From NCBI GenBank assembly GCA_029959195.1, contig CP114127.1, positions 1,550,001-1,614,000 on the forward strand: 64,000 nucleotides of DNA, written 5' to 3'. The DNA is from Dictyophora rubrovolvata (taxonomy: Eukaryota > Basidiomycota > Agaricomycetes > Phallales > Phallaceae). The notes below the pieces were generated by a model that worked only from the letters and a program-made list of their open reading frames with translations, was not told where the DNA came from and made no database searches. Position 1 is the first letter of the stretch. The number at the start of each line of letters is the position of its first letter. Below, in pieces: positions 6,542 to 64,000 of the stretch. Made by a program: the position numbers and the translations under genes.

Positions 6542-9500
6542 ATGGGCTCCGAAGTTAACCTCGAAGATGACGATCTTAATCTGCAAGAGCTCGTCCATTC
6601 TCCTTCTGACGAAAATACCAGTTATCTTCTGGACTCAATTGGGCTTCTGGATTTGCCCACCAAAGACAAAATACATAAAAGACTTCAAGAGGAGTTTTTA
6701 ACACCGTCAGATAGAATTCCTGCACATTGGCTAGGCACTTATCAAATGTAAGCTGTGAGCTGAGATATATCTGTTTTGCATAGTCATCATGGTCATGACA
6801 GTCAGTGGGAAAGCAAACTTTTCGTGCCGTCTTTGCTACCACTTGCTCCCGCTCCTTCGCCTACCAAATTAGAGCTTATTCGAACTGGGTTAGATGGAAA
6901 GGTAACAGGATATGTCGAAGTGCGTCGGTTTTTGTATTTATTTTCTTCAGACACTAACCTGTATATATAGGTCATTAACCCTGCACCAACGTCTAGCATC
7001 ACCTCAACATCTCTTGACCGTCCTTCAGGTCCCGCACGAACGTTCGTACGTGGTAAAACGGGTAATTCACCCTTCTTGCCTGGTGGATTAAAAGATGTCG
7101 TGAAAGCAGTTGAGCGCGATCGCACTCAACCAGATGCCCAACTCTTGAGTGTGCCTCCTGGCTTCTCGCGCGGATTGAATTTGCCTGGCGAAGAGAGCGA
7201 ACGCGTCGCCCCTGACGGTGGTTTGGAACCACCTGTCTTCAAAGTAGATGTCGATACCAAGGTATTCATACGTTTTCAAAAAGGGGTGAGCATGCTGACT
7301 TGCAACCTCCCAGGTGTCAGATTCCTTCCACGCCTTTCCTTCAGCCACCTATAAGTCGCATGGTATTCCCCAAACATCAAACGAAATCGATGATCTACTA
7401 CCTTTAGATGTTCGTTAAACATCCGATTAAATTTCCAGTGCTGATGTCTTTTTTCCCTACAGAGAAGTTACCTTCTCCCGGAGTCTTCTTCAACATCTCA
7501 AATGAAAACCCAGCTACAGGTCCCAAAAAGAGATTGGGCCCATGTAGAATCAATCACAAAACCTAATCCAGAATATGAGCTTTTAAAAAGAAGCGGAGGG
7601 TTAGCTAAAGAGGTTCGTCTCCCCCCATAAAAACATGTTCCAGTCACAAGCTTACATTGTATGAAAGTATCCTTTTGAGCTGGATATTTTTCAAAAAGCG
7701 GCTGCTGTCCATCTCGAACGGAACGAGTCGGTATTTGTGGCTGCTCATACGTCTGCTGGAAAGACGGTTGTAGCAGAATATGCAATTGCCTTGGCTATGA
7801 GACATGTTACCAGGTGAGCTCCACATATCCCCAGTCTTATGTAACGATCATTTATCCTGGGGTGCAGAACGATTTATACTTCTCCTATCAAAGCCCTTTC
7901 TAATCAAAAGTTCCGCGACTTCAAAATTACGTTCGGATCAAATAACGTTGGCATCTTAACTGGTGATGTCCAGGTTGGTTTCTTCCGCTGGCGTAGTCAC
8001 TAGTGGTTGTTATTTATCCTTTCCTCTTTAGATAAACCCCGAAGCACCCTGTCTTATTATGACCACTGAAATTCTACGAAGTATGCTTTACAAAGGTGCT
8101 GATTTGATACGCGATGTCGAGTGGGTTGTCTTTGATGAAGTGCACTATGTTAGCGATGCTGAGGTACGTTTGTTTCATTGAGTCAAGGGAGTCTCTCAAT
8201 GACTTCTCGGGACAGCGCGGGGTGGTATGGGAAGAAGTCATTATCATGCTTCCAGAGCACGTGAATATCATCCTTTTATCAGCGACTATACCTAATGCGA
8301 AGGAGTTCGCTGATTGGGTTGGGTGAGGACTCTACTGAATTTTAACTTTCTAAATATTTATTTCTCAAAAGTCGCACGAAGCAAAAAGACATCTACGTTA
8401 TCTCAACACCCAAACGACCCGTCCCTCTCGAACATTACTTGTATGCAGGGAGAGATATATTCAAAATTGTCGATTCCAAAAGAGAGTTCTTGAACTCAGG
8501 GTATGTAATATCTACGCTGGACCGGGTGGTATGAGTTTATTGCATTCTTCAGGTATAAAGACGCGAGTGAGGCTCTTCGACGGAAGCAGGACAAAGAACG
8601 CGAAGCAGACGGACTCCCTCCGGCTGTGCGTGTAGGCGCGAGAGGTGCACGCGGGGCCATTGCTCAGCGAGGCCAACGAGGTCGAGGTGGTCCTCTAACC
8701 AGAGGTGGTGGTGGTGGTGGTGGTGGAACAACGCGCACCACGCATTACCAGTTAGATAGAAGTCTCTTCGTGCATCTTGTGGGTTTTCTTAGGAAGAAAG
8801 ATCTTCTGCCGACCGTTGTATTCACGTTTTCGAAAAAACGGTGTGAAGAACAGGCGTCGACGCTCAATAACGTTGATCTTTGTTCAGCGGTCGAGAAGAG
8901 CGAAATTCATGTTGCCCTAGAGAGAGCCCTGTTGAGGTTGTCTGGTACGTTGTTTGTTTCTAATATCCCATGGAAGAGAGCGTGACCGTTTTCTACAGCG
9001 TCAGATAAGAAACTGCCGCAGATTTCGAGAATGAAAGAGTTATTATCCCGGGGAATTGGAGTACATCATGGAGGGTTGTTACCTATCATCAAAGAAGTAG
9101 GGAACATATTGTATTTGGGTAATCTTGGCACTTATCATCTATATAACCAGGTCGTTGAGATCCTCTTTTCACGAGGCCTTGTAAGAATTCTCTTTGCCAC
9201 CGAAACTTTTGCTATGGTTCGTCTTTGGTCATTTGTTTCGCTGCAGATTCATTAAATCGTTTTTAGGGTGTAAACATGCCCGCAAGATGCGTCGTTTTCT
9301 CTGGTATTCGGAAACACGATGGTAAAAGCTTTAGGGATATTTTGCCTGGCGAATACACACAAATGTCTGGGCGTGCCGGACGACGTGGGTTGGATTCTAT
9401 CGGTGTTGTTATCGTTCTCGCCGGTGATGAACTGCCTGACGTACGATTATAACGTCTTTTCTCCCAGATTATCAATTTATCCTCTGACTTTACACTTCTA

Positions 9501-16803: not shown

Positions 16804-19636
16804 AATGTCCACCACCTTTAACGCCCTTAAAGTTGCTGCCATGAACATTACAGAGACTAAAAAGATTAAAGACCTTACTCAGGAAATCACTGTTCCTCCT
16901 AAAGGAGAGAAAATGACAACGGATTATGGTGTCAAGATTCATGATCCGGACAACTGGTAAGTAGTTCTTTTTGCCTTTTGTTTGATGATAAAGGACTCAT
17001 CTCCTCTATTATTCACATCAAAGGTTGCATGTAATTAACGACAAAACCTACGGACCTGCCTTGCTCGAAGATTCCATCGGAAGAGAAAAAATCCACCGCT
17101 TCGATCACGAGCGTATTCCGGAGCGTGTTGTCCATGCTAGAGGAACCGGTGCTCATGGCTATTTTGAAGTTTTCGATAATAGCATGGAAAAATATACGCT
17201 GGCTAAGGTTCTTACTGATCCGAGTAGGAAAACACCTACTTTTGTGCGGTTCTCTACTGTACAGGGAAGTCGTGGTAGTGCGGATACTGGTGCGCATTTT
17301 TTAAAAGAAGTTTGGCATTCTTTAATATTGTGGATCTAGTTCGTGACGTTAGAGGATTTGCTACCAAATTTTATACTGAAGAAGGAAATTGGGATCTTGT
17401 TGGGTGTGTATGATTAAGCATATCTCAATTCGAACTTTGTTTTACATAGCTCATCTCCCGTCAGGAACAATATCCCTGTCTTTTTCATCCAAGATGGAAT
17501 AAAATTTCCCGATATTATTCACGCAGTAAAACCTGAACCGAAAAACGAGGTATAAATTATTCTAACTTGACACTTAACACTCTATCAACTCAAACCGTAA
17601 AATCGATAGGTCCCGCAAGGTCAAACTGCCGTATGTATACATCTCCGAACGAAGAAAATTGCGAACAAAGCTGACAGTCAAAACGATGGTAGCACAATAA
17701 CTTTTGGGATTTTGCTCACTTGCAACCGGAGACGACGCACATGCTCTGCTGGATCATGTCCGACCGCGCCATTCCCAGGAGCTATAGAACTATGCAAGGT
17801 TTCGGCGTTAACACTTATACGCTAATGAATGCCAATTCGAAACGCGTTTTCGTGAAATTTCATTGGTTGCCTGAACTCGGTGTTCATAGTCTGGTGTGGG
17901 ATGAGGCCTTGAAGATTGCCGGTCAAGATCCAGGTTAGTTAAGAAAACGCGATACAACTATGATATTTATTTTCGCAAAATTTGCTTAATACCCTCTTCT
18001 CGCAGATTTTCACAGAAAAGATCTCGAAGAGGCTATTAATAACGGTGCATTCCCTGAATACACTTTCGCAGTTCAAATTATCGAAGAGGCTGATCAACAC
18101 AAGTTTGATTTCGAGTACGTACATTCCGAGTATTATGCCGCGTTTTGAGCAAAATTCTAATTGTCGGTGGAACATTAGTATCCTCGATGCTACAAAGATA
18201 TGGCCCGAAGATCTCGTTCCTCTCAAGAAAATCGGCAGAATGGTTCTGAACCGAACTGTAGACGAGTTTTTCACGGCAACGGAACAGGAACGTATAAGTT
18301 TTTCGCTTTCTCCAAAAGTGCCAGCCCGAACTGAACTGAGAGGAAAACATCTTTAGATAGCATTTTGTACAAGCCACGTTGTCCCAGGCATCGGCTTCTC
18401 CGACGACCCTCTTCTTCAAAGCAGAAATTTCTCATACTTTGATACGCAAATTTCGCGTCTCGGTATTAATTGGGAAGAGTTGCCTATCAACAGACCTATC
18501 TGTCCCGTATTCAACTTTAACAGAGACGGAAAAATGAGACATAGAATCACGAATTCTAAAGTCAATTATTATCCAAACAGATTCGCAGAGATCAGTCCTG
18601 TACCTAAAGAGATGGGTGGTTATGCATTGTATGTGATGCCTTGCGTTATGGTGTTTTTTGGTTCATAACGTGTTCTTAGCCACCGTGACAACATAAATGG
18701 GATCAAAGAACGAATTCGTGGACCCAAGTTCCAAGAACATTTCAACCAGGCCCAATTGTTCTACAACTCTATGAGCGCACACGAGAAATCCCATATGATT
18801 AAGGCATTCACTTTTGAGCTGTCTCACTGCGACGATCCAGTAGTTTACAAAGGAATGTGCGAACGTCTTCAAGATATCGACTTTGAATTAGCTCGCCAAG
18901 TCGCTCTCAATGTCGACGGTCCAGAACCAAACAAGAACGTCAGACCGAACCATGGCAAAATCGCGAAGGGACTTTCTCAGATGGAGTATATCCCCGAAAC
19001 GCCAACTATCAAAGGACGCAGAATCGCAATCCTTGTTGCGGATGGATTCAATTCCACCGAAGTCACTCAGATTCGTGGTGCACTTAAAGTTGGGATGGCT
19101 ACTACCTGGATAATTGGTCCGCGTCGAGGGGCTGTGTACGGTGCCGGTGAAACTGCTGGATCTAGCTCCGGAACGTCCGCCGACCATTCGTTTGACTCCA
19201 TGCGGTCTACTATGTTTGATGCTATTATCATTCCTTCTGGACAGGCTCATATCGCAACCTTGGCCAAAACGGCAAGGGCTATTCATTGGATTAGGGAAGC
19301 CTTTGGACATTTAAAGCCTATCGGGGCTGTGGGCGGTGAAGGTGATTTTAGCTTCCAATCGTATCTTTGAACAAACGTTGAAATCCTTTTATAGCTATAA
19401 CTCTTTTGAGGGACGTTGTGCAATTGCCGGGTATTCAGTATCCCATCGAGGGGTCCGGAGAAGAAGTTATTGACAGCTATGGAGTAATTACTACTAAAAA
19501 GCTGTCTTTGACCAAAGAAGCGTTTAGGTTGGTGAAAGGAGATGCAACTTTTGTAGGTAAATTTGGTTTAGCTGTTGCCATGCATCGCAACTTCCAGAGA
19601 GAAACGGATGGATTGGCTGGACGAGTGTCTTATTAA
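16804..19636 (+). CDS. Large-subunit catalase with C-terminal DJ-1/PfpI-like domain
   Basis: This is a clade 2 (HPII-like) haem catalase breaking down hydrogen peroxide. It starts [17 protein letters not shown]. The catalytic His lies in [16 protein letters not shown] and the Asn in [11 protein letters not shown]. Other conserved parts are [31 protein letters not shown]-like [16 protein letters not shown], and [14 protein letters not shown]. The haem-proximal Tyr lies in [14 protein letters not shown] (about 18420-18465), followed by [15 protein letters not shown]. From about 19010 the tail [14 protein letters not shown] ... [12 protein letters not shown] is the flavodoxin-like domain typical of large catalases. 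It ends [15 protein letters not shown] at 19636. At 18290 a GTATAAG donor gives [17 protein letters not shown] across the junction. No signal peptide is seen, suggesting an intracellular enzyme. Confidence 0.93.
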
Positions 19637-22168: not shown

Positions 22169-23428
22169 ATGTCTAATAATCAGACGCAACCAAACTTGGT
22201 TTCAGTAACATATCCTAGAGAAAATGTAGCGTTAGTGGCCCTTAATCGGTGAGTCTTTTTCAAGTTTCATATTTTGCTTTTATGATTATGATTGCAGTCC
22301 GCCAGTCAACGCATTTCATCAGCCGTAAGCTAATCTAACACATTCTCGTGTTAGATCACCCAGATTTATTCTTTAACAAAATTACAGTTTTTGGGAAGAA
22401 CTAGGTTTAAAGTTCAACGAGTTGGGAAAAGATGGTAGTGTTAGGGCTATTGTTCTGGCTTCAGCACTGTCCAAGTATTTTACCGCCGGCTTGGACCGTA
22501 TGTTTTCGGTCATACTCGATTTTATAATCGTATGGCGCTCATAGCTATGTCACTTGTTAAGTGCTGTCGGCAGCGTCATCTCTAAAAATGTCCATCGATT
22601 CCGATCCAGCACGCAAAGCGAGAGAACATAGGGAGTCAATTTTGGTATGTACATATAAGGTTCACCTCTGAGTTTACATGTACTCAATTGATTATTTTGT
22701 TTATCATCTAGCGCTTTCAATCTTGCATCTCTCAAATTGAGCATGTTCCGCAACCTGTTATCGCAGCTGTGAACGGTTACGCTTTAGGCTTGGCGATTGA
22801 CATTTTATCCGCGTGCGATATCCGGTATGCTACACCTTCTACTATCTTTGCGGTCAAGGTAGGAAAGTTCCTGTGTTTGTATCACAGACGTGGATTGCCC
22901 AACATGTTTGCATTTTCTAGGAAGTAGATGCAGGACTGGCCTCTGACATTGGAACACTGGCGCGTCTTCCAAAAATTACAGGTAATGAAAGCACACTCCG
23001 AGAATTAGCTTATACAGCACGGAATTTCAGTGCGGAAGAAGCTTTACAATTCGGTTTTGTTGGGAAGATTGTCCAAGGTGGAAAGGAGGAAGTTGTAAAT
23101 GCTGCTATTGAGACCGCGAGTATTATTGCTTCCAAGTCGCCTGTTGCAGTAGTTGGTACGAAGCATCTGTTAATTCACTCAAGGGATCATAGGTATGCGC
23201 GCGCTCGGGCTCACCTTTTTCTTTATTTTATTTAAAATTCGAAAGCGTCCCGGAGAATTTGGATTATACCGCCACTTGGAATTCCGCTCATTTGCAGACA
23301 AAGGTTCGCACGTCTGCTACATAAGTTATATAACCTCAATAAATCCTATTATACAGGACATTGAGGACTCAATCAAGGGTTTTACGCAAAACAAACCTCC
23401 GAAATTCCGTGATCTTCCCAAACTCTGA
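22169..23428 (+). CDS. Enoyl-CoA hydratase/isomerase family protein (ECH1/dienoyl-CoA isomerase-like)
   Basis: The start is MSNNQTQPNLVSVTYPREN. The crotonase fold is clear: VALVALNRPPVNAFHQPFW, IVLASALSKYFTAGLD (oxyanion-hole strand), HVPQPVIAAVNGYALGLAID, LSACDIRYATPSTIFAVKEV, DAGLASDIGTLARLPK, ARNFSAEEALQFGFVGKIV, ASKSPVAVVGTKHLLIHSRD. The acidic residues in VDAGLASDIG match the Glu/Asp of Δ3,5-Δ2,4-dienoyl-CoA isomerases in fatty-acid β-oxidation. The C-terminus KPPKFRDLPKL has no clear peroxisomal SKL. About six short introns were followed. Confidence 0.9.
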
Positions 23429-30545: not shown

Positions 30546-31597
30546 GTATTAAATTCTCTGTCAAAATGGGGCAATGAACACCCCCGTACAGCGAGTTTGT
30601 CGGCACCTTCATTCCCAAGTATTCCTTGATGTCCGCGGACGTGTTGAAACTTGACAGGTTGTCCCTTTAAAGCTCGTTCGTCTAGAAGATCCGAAAGGTG
30701 GGTAATAAGCTCCTTGTTTTTGACGTCTGTACCCGTGCCCGTTTTCCAATTTTGTTTTCTCCATTTGGATAACCAGTCGCGAATACCTAGAAAAGAATGA
30801 CGTGGCTCTCAGAATGGTGCATTATAAGAGAAAAATCGAAATGAACTACTTACAGGATATCGAGTAGGAGGAGTCCGTCTTGATTAAAAGGGGTTTGGGG
30901 GTAATCAAATGTGTCTCTAGTAATCTGATGATAGCCTAGATATGCTAATGAGTCTTCTTTCGTTTTCGTATGATTAATCAATGATGAATTTACTATCAGC
31001 TCTGCGCGATTATTTGTCTGAGCACCCGGACAACGTTCTGATATGTTCCTTGAAAAACGTTTACTATGATATCCATGCAGACAAGAATAAGGCTTACCTG
31101 GGATCATTCTCTCCCCACCACACGCCTATTCCAGCAATAGCCCCGTCTTTACCATTATTCGAGCAAGCTCCGTCAGTAAAGACAACGTCCCAATCCTTTT
31201 CGTTCGTGGCATCATTGACATTGTCTGTCGTTCGTTTCTCGTGTTTTCTCTCAAGATATGTTTTCTTTGTGCTTGACGAGGAAGACGGAGGAATTGATGA
31301 AGATACTGTTGTGGTTACGACTTCAGGTGCAGATGCAGATGTCGATCCTCCTGTATTCAACGATCGTGGCCCTTGTTTAACAAACGCATCGGCTTCTAAA
31401 GCGCTACGGAATTTCTTGTACGAAGCCTTTGGAAATCCTTTAACTTGGTCTTCACACTCTTTCCTTTCAGATAGCTTGAGTTTTCATGATCTTTTTGAAG
31501 TGAGAGGAAACGGGAAGATTGATCACCAAGAGTGGTAAACACCTGGCTGCTTTCCAATGTGAACAGCGTAAAAATCGGTCTTGGAAACTTTGGGCAT
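30506..31597 (-). CDS. Ribonuclease H1
   Basis: The start at 31597, MPKVSKTDFYAVHIGKQPGV, joins across an intron (31525-31467) to W-KECEDQVKGFPKASYKKF, the hybrid-binding (viroplasmin-like) domain. A Ser/Thr-rich linker follows, then the catalytic domain. It shows DVVFTDGACSNNGKDGAIAG (Asp), AQTNNRAELI (Glu), LLIKTDSSYSISC (Asp), IRDWLSKWRKQNW, VRGHQGILGNEGADKLAV (Asp). All four carboxylates are present. It removes RNA from RNA-DNA hybrids. The last residues TPDAATQKEYESN run into the antisense of the catalase relic, so the original C-terminus may have been replaced. Confidence 0.92.
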
Positions 31598-33701: not shown

Positions 33702-35048
33702 ATGACCAGAAAATCTGCACTCTTGTCTCTTTTCATCTCTTCTGCGTTTGCATTCTCACATTATGAATCTCTTGCTGGGCTTAGCCAAAGAGATATTGAC
33801 CAATTTATACTCAGTTATCCGGACGTAGTTATCCCCAATCCCCCGGGTCCTTTGGAAAATGACTCCATCAAGCTTGTCAACGATCCGGCACATCCCTTCA
33901 TCCCCCCTACACACGATGATATTCGTGGACCGTGTCCTGGGTTGAATACCCTTGCTAATCATGGTGTACGTAACTTTGAAATTATTTTCCACCGTTCGTC
34001 CCCGTTGACTTGCTTCTGTCAGTACCTCCCCAGGTCAGGTGTTGCGAGACCAGATCAGATCGTATCCGCCGTCATGGAAGGTATAGAGTAATGTTCTAGC
34101 TTTTTAGCCCGCTTTTCTAAAATATATCGTTAGGATTCAACCTGGGAAACGATTTTGCGAAATTTTTAACTTACCAAGCCCACGTATTGAACGGAAATCC
34201 TGTGACGAACCTTTTGAGTATCGGAATGAAAACACCCGAAACTGGTCCTGATCCTCCAAAACCAGCCGCTGTAGGAGGCTTGACTTTTCATGGGACCTTC
34301 GAAGGTACTGTTTGTCGTTATACTTTTCAATATCTTTGACCTAAAAGTTGTGTTTATGTTCAGGCGATACGAGCATGACACGTGTTGACGCTTTCTTTGG
34401 CAATCAAGCGGTTTTCAATGAACGACGTTTCGACGAGGTATGATACACTGTCCCAAAATAATTTATCTAGCTAACCGCAACAACAAGTTTGAAGCCTTCG
34501 CTATAGTGTTCGGTGTCAACCATACGTATGATATAAACGCCGCAGCTGAACTCCGTCACCGACGTCTTCAAGACTCGATTCACACAAACCCTGAACTCGT
34601 CTTCACTTCTCCACGGATATTGTCTGCTTTCTCAGAAGCTATCTTCCCCTTGACCTTTTTCGTAGACGGCCGCCTGAATAACAAACAGCTCAATCTCAAA
34701 GCCGCCCGAGATTTCTTTGGTCCGAACATAATGCCAGAAGGATTCCACCGTCAGCCAGCAGCAGTCAGTTTCCCGGTCATAATGCCCCTCGTTCAACAAA
34801 TCTTTGACAAGCATCCCTTCGTTCCGGGGGTCAATCATGGTGTTAACAATTTCATGTTGATGCCTGAAACTCCTGCTCTGTCCGACTTTTGTGGAATTTA
34901 CGAAGATATTGTTCTTCGTGTTTTGAAAATTCAGTATCCTAATCCTACTGGTCAGCTCAGAGAGGCTCTTAATACCAATTTGGACTTTTTCTTCTCTTCG
35001 GTAGAAGGTCATAATTGCACGCAAGTCTTTCCTTTCGGAAAAGACTGA
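33702..35048 (+). CDS. Unspecific peroxygenase (UPO), haem-thiolate, copy 1
   Basis: The start MTRKSALLSLFISSAFAFSH is a signal peptide. The key motifs of the long UPO family are in order: PCPGLNTLANH with the haem-ligand Cys, YLPRSGVARPDQI, LLSIGMKTPETGPDPPKP, FEGDTSMTRVDAFFGN (the EGD metal site), and RILSAFSEAIFPLTFFVDGR (the Arg/Glu acid-base pair). The end YPNPTGQLREALNTNLDFFF ... CTQVFPFGKD matches the AaeUPO C-terminus. Introns sit after NHG (33967), after the MEG Glu, after FEG, and at 34438-34487. UPOs use hydrogen peroxide to insert oxygen into aromatic and aliphatic substrates outside the cell. Confidence 0.93.
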
Positions 35049-39120: not shown

Positions 39121-40475
39121 ATGATAATCATAAAATCTGCACTAGTATTATCTCTTGTCATTCCTTTCACACTTGCCCACCCGGGGCACTACAAGTCTCT
39201 TTTTAGACTCGGAAAAAACATCGTCGACGATTTTATGGTCAGAAAACATATCGCAAATATCCCTAATCCTCCCGGTCCTTTAAAGGATGACTCTATGAAG
39301 ATGGTCAATGACCCTATACACCCCTACATCCCTCCTGGACCCACTGATGTTCGTGGACCATGTCCCGGATTAAACACCCTTGCTAACCATAATGTACGTA
39401 CCTTTATGCGTTCCTCTTACGGCCCGTTTGAATCGCATTTGGTAGTACCTTCCTAGGTCCGGCGTTGCCAGACCAGACCAGCTTATAACGGCCGTCATGG
39501 AAGGTTTGGCGATCTTTGACGTTCTCTCACACATTAACTGAGAGTAGTGAACTAGGGTACAACTTGGGAAATGATTTTGCAAAATTTTTGGTCTACCAAG
39601 CACACTTGTTGAACGGGAATCCTTTGACGAATCTCATGAGTATCGGAGGAAAAACTTCGCAAACCGGCCCCGATCCTCCGAAACCTGCTTCGGTAGGAGG
39701 TCTGTCCCACCATGGAACTTTCGAAGGTGTTTGATACCATTATATTATTGGCATTGTGCGTTATGACTCATATTATAAAAAGGCGACACGAGCATGACTC
39801 GTGTTGACGCTTTCTTTGGGAACCAAGTAAAGTTCAACGAAGACCTTTTCGACAAAGTATGACATATTCACCTGATAAAGAATTATTCAAGGTTAATCAC
39901 TCATCCGCCAGTTTACTTCATTTTCTCAAAAATATGGAGTTAACGGTACATACGACATGAACGTAGCTGCCGAGCTTCGCCACCAGCGTCTTCAAGATTC
40001 CATTCAAACCAACCCCCAACTCACCTTTGTCGCTCCACGTATATTATCCGCCTATTCAGAAGCTGTTTTCCCCACAATATTTTTCGTGGACGGCCGTCTT
40101 AACAATGGACAACTCAAACTCGAGGTGGCTCGATCTTTCTTTGACAAAAATATGATGCCAGCAGGATTCCATCGTCAACCAGCCCCGGTCAGCTTTCCAA
40201 CCGTAACGCCCCTTATTCAACAGGTCTTTGACAGGCATCCTTTCACTCCGGGTGTCAATGATGGCGCTAACAATTTCACCTCAAAGCCCGACACTCCCGA
40301 TTTGTTTGACTTTTGTGGAATTTATGAAGATATCGTCTCCCGCGTTTTGAAAATACAGTATCCTAACCCTACTGGTCAGCTCAGAGCTAGTCTCAATACT
40401 AATTTGGACTTTTTCTACTCTGCGGTGAAAGGGCACAATTGCACTCAAGTCTTTCCCTTTGGAACTAGTAAATAA
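39121..40475 (+). CDS. Unspecific peroxygenase (UPO), haem-thiolate, copy 2
   Basis: Signal peptide MIIIKSALVLSLVIPFTLAH. Motifs: PCPGLNTLANHN with the haem Cys, RSGVARPDQLITAVMEG, LMSIGGKTSQTGPDPPKP, FEGDTSMTRVDAFFGNQ (EGD), RILSAYSEAVFPTIFFVDGR (Arg and Glu), and the end LRASLNTNLDFFYSAVKG ... CTQVFPFGTSK. Exon structure matches copy 1, including an intron before FTSFSQKYGVNGTYD (39858-39911). It is complete and likely functional. The DUF4430 copy 2 lies upstream on the other strand. Confidence 0.93.
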
Positions 40476-41857: not shown

Positions 41858-44350
41858 ATGAGTTCAATCTCCATCTTGGTATCTGGTGTTCTCGTCCTTT
41901 CAATTGTTCGTATTCTCTATGGGCTTTTCCGGCGGCGTGTTATTGATAAACTTCCTGGACCCCCACCAACATCATGGTTAACCGGTTCGTTGATTGTTTT
42001 CAGTTTCATCATGATGTTGTACTAACAAAGACAAAAAAAGGCAACTTACCCGCTATGTACCGTGCAGACGAAATGACCGAACCGCATTTCGAATGGACGG
42101 AAAAGTATGGATCTGTACTTAGGTTACATGAAGAATTCAATGTAAGTCGACAGCTGTCCTCCTGATTAGCGTAGTTCACCCACATATATTTGGCAGAGAA
42201 AAACTCTATTCTTATCTGACCCTAAGGTTTTGGACTATTTGGCACTTTTTAGGTCATCGTCCCGTAAAGTTGACGCGTAACCTTGCAGGCTTTGCAGTAC
42301 ATCTTGAACACTTCGGGATACAATTTCCACAAAACCGGTGCAAGACGATCACACTTGATGATGCTTCTCGGTAAAGGGCTCGTTTGGGCTGATGGTATCA
42401 ATTAATTTTAATGGGACTTCGACCGCGCTCTCATCATATTCATATTCAATATAGGAGCTCAACACACCCGACAGAGGAGAATTATGACCCCTGCCTTCTC
42501 ATTCAATACGCTTAGACATTTCATCCCGATGTTCACTTATAAAGCACAGCTGGTATATCATTGCTAATCGTAGTTTATTTTCGCGTGTGTTAACAAGCAG
42601 AATAGACAGTGAACAAAATCAAGCAGCAAATCGAGTCGACGAAAGAAACTAATCCTAACGTCGTAAATATCGTACCATGGCTCTCCCGTCTCGCTCTTGA
42701 CGTCATTGGGACCGGTTTGTTTTATCCTTTCATTTCGTTCATATATAATTTATATCACTTATTCACAGCTGCTGCTGCGTACGAGTTTGAGGCAATAGAA
42801 GGTGGACAAAGCAACAGGCTAGCCAAAATTTATGGTGACTTATCGTACTTTGCATTTCTTTTTTTTCTCATCGCGACAGCTACAATTGAACAACTCAATA
42901 TTTTTGGTGACACAGGGTTTCCGCGTTCTTTAAACGTCCCGATATCGATTTAGTCATTAGCTACGTCATGGGCAACGTTCCAGGATTTTTGCAAAAGCTC
43001 TTGAGGCGCTTACCAACCAAAAGCTCGAAGAGGCTTAGACCCTACTTATCAGCTGTCACCGCGGTTGCTCAAGAGGTCGTCGATCAACAGACAGCTCTAT
43101 ACGTTGATGGTAAAGAAGGCTCGAAAGATCTTATGAGCGTGCTGGGTAATGTTGTTGTTCTTGTAATTTGATCGTGCAGGACTTACCTTTTATTAGTTAA
43201 GGCCAATCTGTCTGAAGATCCCAAAACGAAGATAACGAATGAGGAAGTCCTTTCACAGTTGACGTGAGCCTCTTGAACGTAATTCTCAACATTTTGATTT
43301 AATTGATTTAGAACATTTTTCTTCGCGGGACATGAAACCACCGCTTTCACCATATCCTGGGCCCTGTACGAACTCGCGCGACACCCCGAATACCAAAACA
43401 AAGTTAGAGAAGAAATCAAGGCAACCCGAATACGTCTTGCGGAAAGAGCTGATAGGGAATTGACTATCTCAGATTTGGATTCAATGCGGTATCTTCCCGC
43501 TCTGATGAAGGTATTTAGTCCACAAAAAACTACCAAGCCGAAGTGTTAATTCTGACAATAAATTTGAAAGGAAACTTTACGATTATATCCCATAGTGTCC
43601 GGTATTTTTCGAGAAGCTTCCCGAGATGATATTGTTCCCTTGTCACATCCCGTAACACTCAGTACCGGAGAGACTATTACCAGTCTCCCGGTTGAACGTG
43701 GACGACAGGTCTTTATGTCATTTATTGCATACAACAGGTGCGGCTCTAACGAGTGACTGAACCCCCGGCTACAAGACTGATAAAGACCTTATTCATCAGA
43801 CATAAATCCGTGTGGGGTGAGGACGCCGACGTATGGCGACCCGAAAGGTTCTTGGAAGACGGTCAAAAAAAGCAACAAATCAGTCTTGGTGTCATGAACA
43901 ATTTGTAAGCCACTACTTACGACATAAAAAGAACGTAAGTGAGACCAATTTGCTGCAGGCTCACATTCGGTAGCGGGGTTAGAAACTGTATTGGGTATGT
44001 TCATTGTGGAAGCTTTTTGATATCCTTGCTTGAACTTTTACAGATGGCGCTTCGCGTGAGATGAAAAATTTCCTTCCCCAATCTCGAGACGCTTTGGTAT
44101 GCTGACAGTTTTATACAGGGTATTGGAAATGCAAACTGTCTTGTTCGAACTGTTGGAGAACTTTGAGTTCTCGCCTCCACCTGGCAACGTCGAAATCCTT
44201 AGAGTCAACGTTGGTGTTATGGAGCCTATGTAAAGTTTTCTTTTATTCTCAATCGTTGATAGTTGCATCTGACGATACTTGGATAGGGTGAAAGGGTCAA
44301 AGACTGGACAAATCGAACTTCCGTTAACTGTTACTCCCTCGCAAGCCTGA
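41858..44350 (+). CDS. Cytochrome P450 monooxygenase
   Basis: An N-terminal membrane anchor MSSISILVSGVLVLSIVRIL is followed by the proline hinge LPGPPPTSWLTG. Next are SDPKALQYILNTSGYNFHK (across an intron with donor GTTTTG at about 42227), and the I-helix FFAGHETTAFTISW. The ExxR is in KETLRLYP, then WRPERFLED, and the haem-binding loop FGSGVRNCIGWRFA, with the Cys ligand split from the Trp by a GTATGT intron. It ends SKTGQIELPLTVTPSQA at 44350. All signature residues are present. It has many short introns and is probably ER-bound. The substrate cannot be read from sequence. Confidence 0.92.
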
Positions 44351-51164: not shown

Positions 51165-51914
51165 ATGGATCATCTGAAGATCTCTGATTTAGTCGATTTA
51201 AATCAGAATTCTTTCTACATTTCGTTGGCAGCAATTGCGTTTAATCCCACCTGGTGGAACATTGTGGCTCGTAATGGTGACGTACCGCTCATTATCTTTT
51301 TTTTTCCTGCCAAACCACAGTCTTAAACCATAACAATAGAATACAGGAACAAAACTATCACACGTATATTAGGAGGAAACGCACGGCTAGGTTGTTATTT
51401 TTTGGCTGTGGCAATTTTTACACTGGGAATTGTGCGGGACACACTGTATGTCTTCGTCCTCTTAGTCTTTGATCAGAACTAGAACTCAGCCATGTCGCAC
51501 AGCTTCGAAAGAGCCTTACGAGACCAACCTACTTTGCCTATTCTTCCACCGCCACTGAACACTTATGTTCCCGCGGCTCTCCTCATCACCGGACAAGTGC
51601 TGGTATTATCCTCCACGTGGGCTCTTGGCATCACGGGAACCTTCTTGGGTGATTACTTTGGGATTCTGATGGACAAAAGAGTGGAAGGATTCCCTTTCAA
51701 TGTTGTTGACAACCCAATGTACATCGGTTCAACACTATGCTTCATTGCTGGCTCCCTATGGTACGACCACCACCTTGTATTCTTGCTTGCTTTCAGAAAA
51801 AACATCCTAACTCCTACTACTATGTATAGGGTTGAAAAACCTGCAGGACTACTAGTGTCGCTGTTTGTCTATCTTGTCTACTCCATTGCATTACGATTTG
51901 AAGGGTTAGACTGA
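51165..51914 (+). CDS. OPI3: Phospholipid N-methyltransferase (OPI3/PEMT-like)
   Basis: The start MDHLKISDLVDLNQNSFYIS is followed by FNPTWWNIVARNEYRNKTIT (across intron 1, donor GTGACG, acceptor AATAG), RILGGNARLGCYFLAVAIF, and RDTL-FERALRDQP (across intron 2, donor GTATGT). Then come the methyltransferase core GITGTFLGDYFGILMDKRVE, FPFNVVDNPMYIGSTLCF, and an end VYLVYSIALRFEG. The last two steps of phosphatidylethanolamine to phosphatidylcholine methylation in the ER are expected. Four helices fit the family. Confidence 0.9.
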
Positions 51915-54357: not shown

Positions 54358-55818
54358 ATGGCTTTCAAATTGTTTCTTGCCCTCATTTCGCTACTGGCAG
54401 TCGTCAATGCGGTTCCCTCAAGCTCACGCCTTGTCACTTGCCCCGACGGTAATAAGGCGAGCAACGAAGCTTGCTGCCCATTTTTTGCTCTCCGTGACGA
54501 TCTTCAAGCTAATTTGTACGTCAAACCTGTCTTCGTGTTTTACTTCCTTTTCTCAAAAAATACTTTTTTTTTACCTGCCTAGATTCTCAAACGAGTGTGG
54601 TGAGGACACCCATGAGGTCCTGCGTCTCGTCTTCCGTAAGAAATTACACCATATAATCATTAAAGCACTCCTCTCAGATCCGTAACAGACGACTCCATCT
54701 CTTATTCTAAGGAATTGACTCGTAAGGGCCAATGGGGAGGCGGTGGTGCCGATGGTTCCGTCCTCGTCTTCCCAGACGTTGAACCAAACTTCCCAGCCAA
54801 CCTCGGCATCTCCGACAGTGTTAACGCTCTTCTTCCCTTCCTAAGGAACTACACAGTCTCTGCTGCAGACCTGGTTCAGCTGGCCGGCAGTGTCGGTCTC
54901 ACGAACTGTCCCGGAGCTCCCCAACTGAATTTCCTAGCCGGTCGTAAAAACGCGACCGCACCCGCTCCAATCGGTCTCATCCCTGAACCTCAAGACAATG
55001 TCACTTCCATTTTGGCACGGTTTGCGGATAGTGGGGGTTTTACGTCTGATGAAGTCGTTGCGTTGCTTGCATCTCATAGTATCGCTCGTGCCGACCATGT
55101 TGATCCGACATTGGATGCTGCTCCCTTCGATTCTACCCCGTTCACCTTCGATACTCAGATTTATGTCGAGGTCTTGCTTAAAGGTGTCGGTGTCCCTGGT
55201 ACTACTGGAAACGCAGGCGAAGTAGACTCCCCCTTGCCCATCAGCGACGAGAAAAATGTTGGTGAGCTTCGTCTTCAATCCGATTTCGCCCTCGCTCGTG
55301 ACCCCCGAACGTAAGTCCAACGCACGTGCCCATCATAAATTCTCTTCACCAACTAAAAAAAAAAATCATGTTTTAAGTGCATGCAAATGGCAAGGATTCG
55401 TCAATGAACAAGAAAAGATGATGTCTGAATTCAAAAATGCTATGCTCAAACTTTCTCTCGTCGGTCAAGACAAAAGCAAGTTGGTCGACTGTTCTGAAGT
55501 TATCCCCAGTCCTCGCCCACCGGCCAGTGCTCAGGCATTGTAAGCACCCAATTAAACTTAACCTGAATGCACAAAAAGCTAAACTTCCACACTTTAGCTT
55601 CCCAGCCACCAAGACTCGCGCCGACATTGAACAGGCATGCAATGCTTCTCCGTTCCCCAAGCTCAAGACTCTCCCCGGCGCATCTCAGACGATCATACCG
55701 TATGTATCTATCATTCATATTGACTAAGAAGCCTTATTCATAAAATCATTATAGACACTGCATTGCAACCGACGCCGCTTGCTTGGCCGCCGAATCTGAT
55801 GGTGACGATGACTCTTAG
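54358..55818 (+). CDS. Class II secretory peroxidase, manganese-peroxidase type
   Basis: A signal peptide [20 protein letters not shown] precedes [32 protein letters not shown] is joined by an intron to HDSISYS, giving the distal Arg and His; the His codon is split. Both Glu of the Mn site are in CGEDTHE. The proximal His and third Mn ligand Asp lie in [22 protein letters not shown] has Ala where lignin/versatile peroxidases carry the surface Trp, so direct high-potential oxidation is unlikely. [30 protein letters not shown] and [17 protein letters not shown] are family blocks. The short tail fits short MnPs. It ends SDGDDDS at 55818. Confidence 0.93.
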
Positions 55819-57054
55819 AGAATTCAACTTGGATTAATGGTTATTTATACTTAAAGTATCTCTTGCGGTGTATATGTGTGTATAGAAGCTGAAGCTAACG
55901 TGAATATATGTGTATATTCTTTGTTTCAACATGAGGATCGCTGTTCAGGAAACGATACAGCTGCCAGTTTAGTATCTCCTATCTTATCTCACCTGTACCA
56001 TGAGTTCTCCCTCGGTTTATTCAGCCAGCGAAACGTGACCATCTCCACAATTTGAACATGGGGTCGAAAAGTATGTGTGGCGAGTGAGTGGCATGCGGCG
56101 GCCGACGGATCTATCGATGATGTTTTTCTCCGAGCTCTGATTGACTAATCACATCCCAATTTGACTATTGCTACGACCATTGAAAAAAAATCAAAGATTG
56201 CAAGATAGGATTGTTCCCAAACTCGTCCAATGTATTAAATGACGAATTAGGTAAAGTCCGGCGGTGTCCCCGGCCCTTCTGAATTGACGGTCACCCTTCT
56301 TGTACAGATCGGATTCAATTGTCTTCCAAAAGCAGAATGCTATGTCAAATGGGGAGTCAATATCCAAATAGGCATAGAAAGTCGCGATGCGGATCCGACC
56401 TCCTTGTTTTTCACAGCTTGTTACATAACATGGCTACTGGTTAAAAAATAATAACGTTGACATAAAAAAATAATGTACAGACCGAGTTTCCTTCGTGGTA
56501 TTTTTTTTCGATAGTAAGGCAGGGAAGAGAATGAACCTAGATGGAGCAGAATCCATTTTTTATCGTGCTGTTGTAACTTGTGCCATATGCGTGGAAACAA
56601 TAAGCTGGGAAATCAACGTAACGCAGATTGTCACACGCAGTGCCCTTCGGGCCTTCGGCGTTCGCTGATGCTGGCTATAAAAACACGTCGCACTTCACTA
56701 CCACTTTGGTCAACACAATAAGTCTCATGCGCTCCGGTCAATTTCAATCTCGGAAATTCCTAACGTGGAGAATGATCGAGGGTGAGGGTTGGCCTGGTAA
56801 GGCAAACTTCTGTTGGTAGCCTTTGGGCCGACTCCAATGTCGCTGAACACAACGAACAGTCCACATGTCAAACCGAATCAAAGTAAATTATTGGGATACG
56901 TGATTTCGAAGTTAACCGAGATGATACAATGCTATTAAGTATACAAAGGAACATAATTGAACGAATATTATGTATGTCGTTGACTAAACAAATAGGATGG
57001 GACAGGTAACCATCAAGTAGAATTCGAAAAGGATTATGGGTGAGTTGTGTTTAT
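55819..57054. other. Intergenic, 1.2 kb
   Basis: A short ORF at 56628-56819 (+) ends FCW and has a TATA-like CTATAAAAAC just inside it, but nothing supports it as a gene. Confidence 0.4.
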
Positions 57055-57240
57055 TCTGAAACGCTGATTCAGAAACTAATTTTCAATGTCCATAGCATTC
57101 AAAACTTACCAAGCGACAACACAGAAACTTCCATTTCCTGTGGTGGATGGGTCATCCTCGTTCACAACAAGATCTTCGTCGGGCTTATCTTGCTTGCCTT
57201 TGGAGATGAGAGCGAGCAAGAGTTCCAAGTATGAGTCCAT
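57055..57240 (-). CDS. Putative farnesylated mating-pheromone-like precursor (CVVA CaaX)
   Basis: A 43-residue product MDSYLELLLALISKGKQDKP ... DLVVNEDDPSTTGNGSFC-VVA. The MDS start, a helical propeptide, a charged VNED processing-like site, a Gly/Ser-rich mature segment and a terminal CVVA box all fit basidiomycete mating pheromone precursors. The stop codon is made by splicing: exon 1 ends GCT TG at 57110, a 54-nt intron follows (57109-57056, GTAAGT...TTTCAG), and the next base A completes TGA. Unspliced, the frame reads one extra Trp (CVVAW, stop), which spoils the CaaX box. TATAAAAG at 57331-57338 is about 95 bases upstream of this ATG. The longer start at 57327 lies only 4 bases from the TATA box, so it is unlikely. 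No receptor gene (STE3-type) is seen in the window. Confidence 0.68.
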
Positions 57241-57330
57241 GAGGATATGAGTAAGTGGGTGTGATTTAAGAAAGGCTTCGAGGCAAAGTTCGAAAGTTGG
57301 TTGGGATTCTGTCAACTGATTTTTCATGGT

Positions 57331-57338
57331 CTTTTATA
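57331..57338 (-). promoter_or_regulatory. TATA box of the pheromone-like gene
   Basis: TATAAAAG on the minus strand predicts transcription from about 57300, leaving a 5' UTR of roughly 60 bases before the ATG at 57240. Confidence 0.6.
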
Positions 57339-60300
57339 TTCTGCATAGCACCCTGACTAGAATGAGTTTCAAAACATTTTTCTTTTGTAGTTTCTCGGAA
57401 TGGAAAGGACTGGATAAAGTGAGACTTATATTGTTTTGTGGGATAGGCTGATCGAGAGCTTCAGGGATGTCCAACAAGTATGAATGAATGTACAGACGAG
57501 ACGGACTAATTACAAGCTCCGTTCGTTACGAGTTATCGGCTGGTCGGATGCCAATTCCGTATATGTTGCATGCGGCATACCATTCAGTCGTGTGTATGAT
57601 TTTGTGGAGTGTCTCAAAGTTATAGCTTTCTGCCAATTTCGCCCATACGGCCACCACTTTAAGAACACAAAAAGAAACTGGTATCCAAAAATGGATATTC
57701 CGTGTCCTATCCAATCGCTTAGGACTGACAGGTCCGGGATTGCTATATGGAGTATAGTTCGTGAGCGGATGCTCCATCTTGCGAAAGTGACAGTTATTAT
57801 TTAATAACAAGTACACGAGCATAACAAATTTTAAAAACTTGCGATAGGCCCATAATTTTCATACGGAGAGTTACCATCTTCCTTAAGCATTTCATACTAC
57901 TGAGGTGGGTCAAGTCAATGGGTGCGCTTTTGATAGTAAATTTTTTACTTGCCCAATGACCCGCCATTTCCGTCGATGATCCGTCATCCCCGCTATCAAA
58001 ATTTCCTATTTTTGCCCGAAACGGGGCTATGTAATAATACCTTGTCATACGTCCCGCGTTTCGATTGAACTCTGAATGTCGCGCTTTTGTTCGATGCTAT
58101 AGTGATAATGATCGGTGCGGCGGAATCCGCTCTTTGTATACAGTTTCAATATGAAGCACGGTCCGACGTCAAGGCGATTCAGGATCTACCATAATGAAGA
58201 GAATTTCTATATTAAACATGAAATTATTCGAACTCCTGATTACTACTGGAGACAAACAAGGAGAAGAATAGGGGGTTTCACGTTGGTAAATTTCAACTTG
58301 GTTCTGAATTCGTCCTCGGAATTCCACCAGAAATCAGTTTTGGAGTTCAGGCTAGAGTTCAGTGAAAGCAGCTCAGAGCCTTTCGCACTTTGATCAGAAA
58401 TTCCGCTCGCTAGTTCTGAGTTCTGGTTTTTTCTCTGATTGAATTTATGTATGTTTGTATAAGGCATGAACTAACTAATAATTATGTATTATATTATCTA
58501 TCAGTCTATATAGAATGTAAGCGGAAATACGAACAGGAATTCAAGTGGAATTAGACAAAATCCATCTGAAATCCTGTGTTAACTTTATGATGTTAAGAAT
58601 TCAAATTCACAAAGGGTTCGGGAAGGAGTTATCCGCCGAATTCAGAGGGAATTCACTTATATTCGAGACGTAATTTTAAACCTTCCGAGCACGGTTCTAC
58701 TTGGAAGGTCGGTTGAATATGTATCAATGTTATATGAATCCAGCCTCGTCAGAGGCACTGTCGCTGGAGGGACACAGGAGCGACCTTGTGAGAGGGGCCA
58801 GAACCCGAGGGCGAATCGGTGCGTGGAGGGGAGGTGAGTCAGGTGAACCATGAATGCATGACCGCCCGGGTGCGCTTCCATCGACCTGAGAGTATGCATC
58901 GACCTGAGAGTATGCATCAATCTCTTTCGCAACTGTGTATATACATGAATCGATACAAGAGTTCATTATCACTGGGAAACGACCATGTACGGAGTGTGTA
59001 AGAGTCGGATAAAGTCCGAGTCATCCGCGGAATCGGAACTTCGTATTGTCTTATTCTAGAGAAACTTTAATTCTTCTTCTTCCTATCTTAATAATACTTA
59101 TTAATAATCTTTCTTTTATTGCTTACTTATAATACTTTCATAATTATTACTTAATCTTTTATTTTAGTATAAATACTTGAGATGTATCTAAAGTGCTCCT
59201 TAGCTTTTAACTACGAGGATTTACTACACTCAACTGCGTGTTTATCTAAGTGACTTAAAGCTACTTGTAAAATAGTCTTCGACTTTTTACAGAGTGGGAT
59301 GGGCGGGAAAGAAGGGAAGTAACAGCGCTTCCCGTTCTGCTGAACACCAGTGAGCTAGTGCCGCGTGGCACTCTAATAAAAATTTGTCCCACTCGTTTAC
59401 AGCTGAACATGAAGTTCTAAGTAGGGGACCATCGCCAGAGGGGAATCTCTTCAACTTTCATTCGGCCGTCAGTCTTGCTTTATCAGTCGAGTTCTGTTTT
59501 TTGCTCCGCCTAGAATTTGCTAGAAACCCACAAATACGTTCCTATCGCTTTAAACATTAATTGATCTTCGTTCAATCCGTTTTGAATCTTTTCCTGAAGA
59601 TTCATTGTTCGTCAGGCTACCTTATAACGATTCAATACTCCGCTCGGTTCTGGATGTCGCCGTTATTTCATCTGGTTCTACAATTTTGTGAGGCGTTTAG
59701 AGGAAGTATCCAAGACGATTCTAAGGTAGGTGGGAATTCCGGGAATAGTTGATTGTAAATACTCGCTTATCCCTCCTCTTGCACGTGTGGCGCGAGCGGC
59801 CATTTTGTCTGAAATAGACCTAGTCAGCGGATTCTATTGGCAGATTTTCATTTAATTGTTCTTCTTGAAATGATTTACGACTATCAAACATAATTTATTG
59901 GTGGTCTATTCACAAGACACGAAAGAACATCCAAGCCCACTTGTGACTTGTCCATGAGGAACCTTGGGAAAACACCATATTTCTCCAAATTGACCCTAGT
60001 AAAAATATATATCCAGGGGCCTTTCTGGGTCATCTTTCACGAAGAGAAATTTGGAAGCTAAAAATCACCTTCGAAGTCGCATTACCGCAACTGTGATCTA
60101 ATCCAGGTCAAATCTGATAAACGTTTCCTATCTGATAAGCATCTGATTACGCAACCGCAGTCAGCTGGGTGGGAAATCCGCTTCCAAATTTAGAGATACT
60201 TATTAGCGCTCGGCGGCCGGTTCCTTCGGCAACCGCTTCTCGCGCCCCGAAAAAAAATCTGATAAGATGTGCGTGCCTAGGAGAGAGTAGAAAAATTACG

Positions 60301-62641: not shown

Positions 62642-62893
62642 AGCGGTGAATTTTATAGCATCATCTTTAGAAACTCTTTTCCCATGTACTCAAAGATATC
62701 CTTCATTTGAAATTTACGATTCCCTTTCAGTGAACGGGGTGACGCGGTTCAATAAGTCCGAGGGACTGCGCGAGTCGACTTGGTCGTGTGACATAATTTG
62801 TTACCACGGCGTTGGATGCTGATTACGTGATCCGTCCAACAAAGTCCGATCGCTCCTCTCGACGCGACGTGCCCTACACAGCGACCGGTGACC

Positions 62894-64000
62894 ATGCTGC
62901 CACTGAAACCGCTTTTAGCATTTGCTTCCTTATCTTTCTTTTCTAATGTTCATTCTTTTCAAATACCCTTTCAACTTCCGTTCTTCAACAGAGACGACTC
63001 GCCGCTCAATATCAATAACGACACTCCGCATCGAATAGCCATCATTGGTGCCGGCGCCGGTGGCTCTAGTGCTGCGTACTGGCTTTCTCAGGCAGCCAAT
63101 AGATATCCTGAACTTGTCAAGGTGCAAGTCGATCTTTATGATAAAGAGTCGTACATCGGTGGTCGTACGTCAGCCCAAGTTGGATTCTCGCACTTTCAGC
63201 GTGGAACTGATGTAATCTTCTCTTCTTTTTTATTTTTCTTTTGCCCTCCTCAAGGCAGTACGGTGGTTCGGCCACACGATTCCGAGTTTTATGATTTTGT
63301 TGAATTAGGCGCTTCGATATTCGTCGATGCGAACAAAAATCTCTTTCGAGCTGTTGAAGAATTCAATCTCTCGCTGTCAAATTTTGGCGAAGAGGATGAA
63401 GAGTTGGGTATTTGGGATGGAACGTCGTTTAGGTTTCGTGTGAGTTTTGCAATATATCATTGTGTCCAACGCTTGAAGTCTTTCTTATGAAATTTAATTC
63501 GAGTAGGTTACTCAAAAGAACGGGTCGTTCAGTTGGTGGGATATGATCAGGATCCTGTTTCGTTATGGTCTTACCACACCACAAAAGGCCCAATCTCTGT
63601 CAGGTTTCCCGTTTAAATGACTTCTAGTCTATTGCTGACGTCTTGTTCTTCTTATAATAGTGTTGACCAAGCGGTCAGCTCATACGTCAATATATACAAT
63701 ACGTCATTCAAGGAGTGGTCAACCATACCAGACGTAGCGTCGAATCTCGGGTTTTCCGACCTTCTCCCGCAGACCATAGAAACGTACATGCTTGAGAATG
63801 GCGTCAGTCAGTTATATATCGATGAATTCACTGAAGGTACTTATTACGTCACAAAAAAGAGGGCTGTTTCTGATAAATTTTTTTTTCTTCCTCTGATAGC
63901 GTTCACCCGAGTCAATTATGCCCATGTGCGTTGTATAATTCAATACCTACTAAAACTCCTTTTCTCATGGTATTATTTCATCCGCGTAGGACGTCACCAA
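62894..64000 (+). CDS. Prenylcysteine oxidase (partial, runs off the window)
   Basis: The start MLPLKPLLAFASLSFFSNVH is a signal peptide. The FAD-binding fold is HRIAIIGAGAGGSSAAYWLS, then VDLYDKESYIGGRTS (the second-strand acidic residue), EFYDFVELGASIFVDANKNL and later WWDMIRILFRYG and LPQTIETYMLENGVSQLYID. Family enzymes release the prenyl aldehyde and cysteine from degraded prenylated proteins, in lysosome or vacuole. Introns near 63205-63255, 63440-63510 and 63606-63660 were followed. The C-terminal part lies beyond 64000. Confidence 0.9.

What the first reader, a model, noticed from the sequence alone, without database searches (positions are those of the whole stretch)
57055..57240. 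Hidden mating-pheromone-like gene whose stop codon is made by splicing
A 43-residue product with an MDS start, a VNED processing-like site and a terminal CVVA box sits in a gene-poor gap. The CaaX box only becomes terminal if a 54-nt intron is removed, because TG|A forms the stop after splicing. Without splicing a Trp follows and prenylation would fail. Splicing could thus act as a switch for an active pheromone, although that is inference. A TATA box is placed correctly for the MDS start.
Basis: partly seen in the sequence, partly recalled or inferred. Interest (0 to 1): 0.9.

Follow-up and report, generated by a model that had tools for sequence, protein, structure and literature searches.

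The report
Fungal pheromone gene, stop by splicing
A short fungal pheromone-like gene carries a predicted intron in the middle of its stop codon, so the lipid-attachment tail of the peptide is probably correct only after splicing; the gene type is known, the placement of the intron is an unusual twist, and nothing yet shows that it works as a switch.

Summary
On the - strand from 57240 lies a 43-codon frame, MDS...NEDD...GNGSFCVVA, followed by TG|GTAAGT...TTTCAG|A. Removing 54 nt (57109-57056) makes TGA directly after CVVA; left in, the frame reads CVVAW, stop. The arrangement occurs once in the window and in 0 of 1500 dinucleotide shuffles. Pfam's pheromone family is the only match, 16.3 bits, below its cut-off of 22 but within the range (13.8-28.6) of four published Rhizopogon precursors. 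It is most likely a real basidiomycete pheromone-like precursor. No STE3 receptor was found in the window by the scans made, and the mature end resembles 'non-mating-type' peptides, so a mating-type role is not shown. The switch is pure inference. A wider point: a TG|GTRAGT stop read unspliced gives exactly CaaX-W-stop, the puzzling ending published for Flammulina FvPp1; that may be the same arrangement, though its authors report transcript support for the Trp. Three Agaricus pheromone-like genes have 3'UTR introns, so an intron near the end is not new for such genes; its place inside the stop may be.

The parts
57110..57240 (-). exon 1: coding sequence of the 43-aa pheromone-like precursor plus TG of the stop codon
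   Evidence: Pfam PF08015 residues 17-42, 16.3 bits, E 0.021, below cut-off 22
57056..57109 (-). predicted 54-nt intron GTAAGT...TTTCAG that splits the stop codon TG|A (phase 2)
   Evidence: sequence and acceptor test, shuffle test; no RNA evidence
57020..57055 (-). start of exon 2: first base A completes TGA, the rest would be 3'UTR (far end not determined; 57020 is arbitrary)
   Evidence: sequence; inference
57112..57123 (-). CaaX box CVVA (codons 40-43)
   Evidence: sequence
57151..57162 (-). NEDD acidic site (codons 27-30), candidate N-terminal processing site; E28 is 12 residues before the Cys
   Evidence: sequence; ED is one of the charged pairs named in PMC5100862 (passage)
57332..57338 (-). 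TATAAAA, candidate TATA box 98 nt upstream of the MDS ATG
   Evidence: function inferred
57325..57327 (-). upstream in-frame ATG (73 aa unspliced, 72 aa spliced), judged to lie upstream of the mRNA start
   Evidence: inference

Best explanation
The feature is a real basidiomycete pheromone-like precursor gene of a kind that automatic annotation easily misses. Transcription from the TATA at 57338 gives an mRNA whose first ATG is that of MDS. A constitutive 54-nt intron inside the stop codon is removed, making TGA directly after CVVA. The Cys of CVVA is then farnesylated, VVA removed and the Cys methylated, and cleavage near NEDD releases a peptide of about 11-13 residues ending ...GNGSFC. It most likely acts as a secreted lipopeptide of the non-mating-type pheromone-like group. 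Shown here: reading frame, splice signals, rarity, family match below cut-off. Inferred: expression, splicing, processing, receptor.
For: Arrangement found once, 0 of 1500 shuffles. Only the acceptor that makes a stop there gives a terminal CaaX. PF08015 is the sole Pfam match at E up to 10; four published Rhizopogon precursors score 13.8-28.6 bits in the same run, two negative controls give nothing. Length, MDS start, acidic site and CVVA fit the descriptions in PMC8305134 (section 15), PMC5100862 and PMC4136793 (passages). Three of four A. bisporus pheromone-like genes are expressed by EST data, all three with an intron in the 3'UTR. Mature end PSTTGNGSFC against the C. cinerea consensus GGGSGNGAYC: 4 of 10 identical (G, N, G, C), with S/T, A/S and Y/F alike (compared by eye). 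Pheromone genes away from receptors are known: Amanita phalloides has its two pheromone homologues elsewhere than its receptor genes (PMC10598064, passage), and four of seven Pycnoporus precursors resemble the non-mating-type group (PMC4101180, passage). Context is a lignin-degrading fungus: Mn peroxidase, peroxygenases.
Against: Pfam score below the curated cut-off and covering only residues 17-42; not listed in blind six-frame scans at E up to 0.05. No canonical branch site in the intron. No RNA data. No homologue found, but the one collection searched, genome contigs, holds bacteria and archaea only. A 54-aa ORF (57086-57250) lies antisense.
Confidence: 0.8

Rival explanations
1. The gene is real but the intron is not used: the product ends CVVAW, as claimed for Flammulina FvPp1 (CAAXW), either still processed or inactive.
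For: FvPp1 ends CAAXW in strains KACC42780 and L11, confirmed by resequencing and, by the authors' account, supported by transcriptomics (passage); the first paper notes that deviant farnesylation signals can work (passage). Weak branch site here.
Against: Consensus donor GTAAGT and acceptor TTTCAG 54 nt apart place a stop exactly after the CaaX box; 0 of 1500 shuffles do so. With CVVAW the last four residues are VVAW, so the Cys is no longer fourth from the end (general knowledge of farnesyltransferase).
Confidence: 0.1
2. Splicing of the stop codon is a regulated switch between an active, prenylated and an inactive, CVVAW peptide.
For: The two forms differ only in the residue that decides whether the CaaX box is terminal.
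Against: No evidence of regulation; any gene with this intron would have this property; constitutive splicing is the default.
Confidence: 0.05
3. A mating-type-determining pheromone of a B (P/R) locus whose receptor lies just outside the window.
For: The window ends 6.8 kb to the right of the gene; CVVA is among the tails named for Schizophyllum pheromones (PMC4136793, passage).
Against: No STE3 listed in six-frame Pfam scans of 19-64 kb nor found by tblastn over the whole window with a recalled STE3 (best E 0.47) that itself scores 352.7 bits to PF02076. In the passages seen, Flammulina precursors lie 320, 427 and 2102 bp from a receptor and the Volvariella one 719 bp. Mature end resembles the non-mating-type group.
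Confidence: 0.15
4. Chance ORF in intergenic DNA.
For: Plain CaaX ORFs arise by chance (1.17 per shuffle); weak Pfam score, missed by blind scans.
Against: MD start plus length plus CaaX plus stop-making intron: 0 of 1500 shuffles; controls.
Confidence: 0.07

Closest known systems
Agaricomycete pheromone-like precursors outside the mating-type function (Agaricus bisporus; consensus of Coprinopsis and Laccaria; PMC8305134, section 15 read, other passages seen)
   Same: 44-54 aa there, 43 aa here; MDS-type start, charged site, CaaX, G-containing end with GN(G/N)(A/S)(Y/F)C; intron near the 3' end
   Different: Their introns are reported in the 3'UTR; here the intron sits inside the stop codon
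Flammulina velutipes FvPp1, CAAXW (PMC3140503, PMC5100862; passages seen)
   Same: Genomic reading frame runs CaaX-Trp-stop in both
   Different: There the Trp was explained by a stop-codon substitution and reported as transcript-supported; whether its DNA reads TG|GTRAGT could not be tested here. FvPp1 lies 2102 bp from a receptor gene; this gene has none found in the window
Mating-type B pheromone precursors (Pfam PF08015)
   Same: Family profile is the only Pfam match
   Different: Below cut-off; no receptor found in the window

Membership tests
Basidiomycete lipopeptide pheromone precursor (PF08015-like) | C-terminal CaaX box | tested here: met
   CVVA terminal if the 54-nt intron is removed; removal itself untested
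Basidiomycete lipopeptide pheromone precursor (PF08015-like) | Short precursor (40-100 aa) with MD start | tested here: met
   43 aa, MDS; range from PMC5100862 (passage)
Basidiomycete lipopeptide pheromone precursor (PF08015-like) | Charged processing site 10-15 residues before the C-terminus | tested here: met
   ED of NEDD; E28 is 15 residues before the last residue and 12 before the Cys, at the edge of the stated range (passage)
Basidiomycete lipopeptide pheromone precursor (PF08015-like) | Score above the PF08015 cut-off | tested here: not met
   16.3 against 22 bits; 2 of 4 published Rhizopogon precursors (21.7 and 13.8 bits) also miss it, so this cut-off is not treated as defining
Basidiomycete lipopeptide pheromone precursor (PF08015-like) | Farnesylated secreted peptide | not testable with these tools
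   needs mass spectrometry
Mating-type (B locus) pheromone | Close linkage to an STE3 receptor gene | tested here: not met
   none listed in 19-64 kb by Pfam, none in 1-64 kb by tblastn with one query; beyond 64 kb not testable
Mating-type (B locus) pheromone | Allelic variation between mating types and activity in crosses | not testable with these tools
   single sequence, no strains

The most novel reading that the evidence does not exclude
Basidiomycete pheromone genes include a class with an intron inside the stop codon, so that a functional CaaX tail exists only in spliced mRNA; ORF-based pheromone finders miss or mis-end them (CaaX-W), and the published Flammulina CAAXW pheromone is one of them. 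In some of these genes splicing may control pheromone activity.
Probability: 0.3. Interest if true: 0.6.

Novelty: new variant of a known kind. Interest (0 to 1): 0.45.

Why it matters
Short pheromone genes are hunted by looking for open frames that end in CaaX (described in passages of PMC5473757, PMC8970355 and PMC8686365). A gene whose stop exists only after splicing can escape that search or be recorded with a false Trp. If the arrangement recurs, counts of pheromone genes in mushrooms are too low, reports of 'missing' or tail-less pheromones need rechecking, and the Flammulina puzzle has a simple test. It also ties an essential lipid modification to a splicing event.

Tried and rejected
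Own-genome search for STE3: no genome held. Strings of the peptide's end in papers: 6 papers, only PMC8305134 relevant. Stop codons interrupted by introns in pheromone papers: searches; no passage seen here states it for a fungal pheromone. Papers opened, 15: passages of PMC3140503, PMC8305134 (also section 15), PMC10607315, PMC5100862, PMC8686365, PMC8970355, PMC5473757, PMC4101180, PMC10598064, PMC11433599, PMC12387193, PMC4136793, PMC4938666, PMC3248468, PMC8161036; no whole text read. Pheromone response element (motif from PMC3248468): exact ACAAAGGGA not found in the window; one single-mismatch copy at 58609 among 20 in the window, taken as chance. Simple gene model for the peroxidase (one intron, 53 nt) was only partly sensible and was not used. 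Repeats, Rfam and tRNA scans gave nothing of use.

Full report
What is there. On the - strand an ATG at 57240 opens MDSYLELLLALISKGKQDKPDEDLVVNEDDPSTTGNGSFCVVA. The DNA continues TG|GTAAGT, and the 54-nt stretch ends TTTCAG|A. Removing 57109-57056 gives TGA after CVVA; without removal the frame reads TGG TAA, that is CVVAW and stop. Of four AG ends in the stretch only this one leaves CVVA at the end.

Chance. In 1500 dinucleotide shuffles of the whole window, both strands, the pattern 'MD, 30-75 residues, C-[AILVM]-[AILVM]-X, stop made by removing a GTRNGT...YAG intron of 42-76 nt' never arose; in the window it occurs once. Dropping the MD requirement gives 7 of 1500 shuffles with a case. A plain CaaX-stop frame is common by chance: 1.17 per shuffle with any ATG and 0.04 with MD, against 1 and 0 in the window; a laxer box finds 5 in the window. 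The pattern was set after seeing the finding, so the figure is a guide, not a formal probability.

Family. Pfam's only match at E up to 10 is PF08015, fungal mating-type pheromone, 16.3 bits, residues 17-42, cut-off 22. In one run with controls, four published Rhizopogon precursors score 25.7, 28.6, 21.7 and 13.8 bits, so 2 of 4 also miss the cut-off; a hand-made scramble of the window peptide and the chance CaaX ORF at 6912 give no match. The 73-aa reading from the upstream ATG scores lower, 14.8 bits. Against this, six-frame scans of 49-64 kb at E up to 0.05 did not list the family, since the score is too weak once the product is part of a long frame. Van Peer et al. accepted FvPp1-3 at Pfam E-values 0.0013, 0.45 and 0.035 (PMC3140503, passage).

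Which kind of pheromone. The A. bisporus paper describes precursors of 44-54 aa, three of whose mature peptides resemble non-mating-type peptides with consensus GGGSGNGAYC (C. cinerea) and GGGSGNNAYC (L. [quoted passage not shown] The window peptide ends PSTTGNGSFC. No STE3 gene was found: six-frame Pfam scans of 19.0-64.0 kb, which left gaps of a few bases between blocks and used E cut-offs of 0.05 (49-64 kb) and 0.01 (19-49 kb), list none, while listing exons of intron-bearing peroxidases; tblastn over the whole window with one recalled STE3 sequence, itself 352.7 bits to PF02076, gave a best E of 0.47. Region 1-19 kb was covered by that tblastn and by four long ORFs lying there (the fourth ends at 19367) only. 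The window stops 6.8 kb to the right of the gene, so a receptor further on cannot be excluded.

The Trp. For any stop codon TG|A with donor GTRAGT the unspliced frame reads TGG TRA, one Trp and a stop (follows from the genetic code). Flammulina FvPp1 is published as ending CAAXW; the first paper proposed a stop-codon substitution, the second confirmed the Trp by resequencing and says that transcriptomics supports it, while FvPP4 has the same predicted mature peptide without the Trp (PMC5100862, passage). The splice-made stop is an untested alternative for FvPp1; the reported transcript support speaks against it unless those reads stop short of, or retain, the intron.

Mechanism. Most likely: constitutive splicing, farnesylation at Cys of CVVA, cleavage near NEDD, secretion of an 11-13-residue lipopeptide. 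Frame and signals are shown; the rest follows from what is known of the family. A regulated switch is possible in principle and unsupported.

Limits. No transcript data; no fungal genome collection, so no test of conservation; organism not identified beyond a lignin-degrading basidiomycete, inferred from a Mn peroxidase at about 54.7-55.7 kb (best match 1mnp) and a peroxygenase (best match 2yor). The branch site is weak. Prior description in ascomycete a-factor genes could not be checked.

Noticed in passing
62831-63838 (+): FAD oxidase frame: NAD_binding_8 above cut-off (25 bits; 33.2), and Prenylcys_lyase at 16.1 bits, below its cut-off of 27. A prenylcysteine-oxidase-like gene about 6 kb from a prenylated-pheromone gene may be coincidence or a functional link.
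   Followed up: partly
54742-55703 (+): Class II peroxidase with extension domain, closest solved structure Mn peroxidase 1mnp.
   Followed up: partly
33891-35045 and 39319-40472 (+): Two peroxygenase-like genes (PF01328); the second matches aromatic peroxygenases (2yor best); the first was not compared with solved structures.
   Followed up: partly
51492-51914 (+): Phospholipid methyltransferase (PF04191, 83.6 bits); looks like OPI3 (name recalled) rather than the pheromone methyltransferase ICMT.
   Followed up: no
56434-56556 (-): A 40-aa ORF that also begins MDS but has no CaaX end, about 0.5 kb from the pheromone-like gene.
   Followed up: no
43313-43510 (+), 30578-31462 (-), 22715-23196 (+), 18669-19367 (+): Other Pfam matches: cytochrome P450, RNase H with Cauli_VI domain, enoyl-CoA hydratase, C-terminal part of a long catalase.
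   Followed up: no
published: Pleurotus ostreatus php-s1 (PMC12387193, passage): A 74-aa pheromone-like ORF reported to lack its CaaX tail although it is 89.66% identical to a P. eryngii pheromone; worth rechecking for a missed terminal intron.
   Followed up: no
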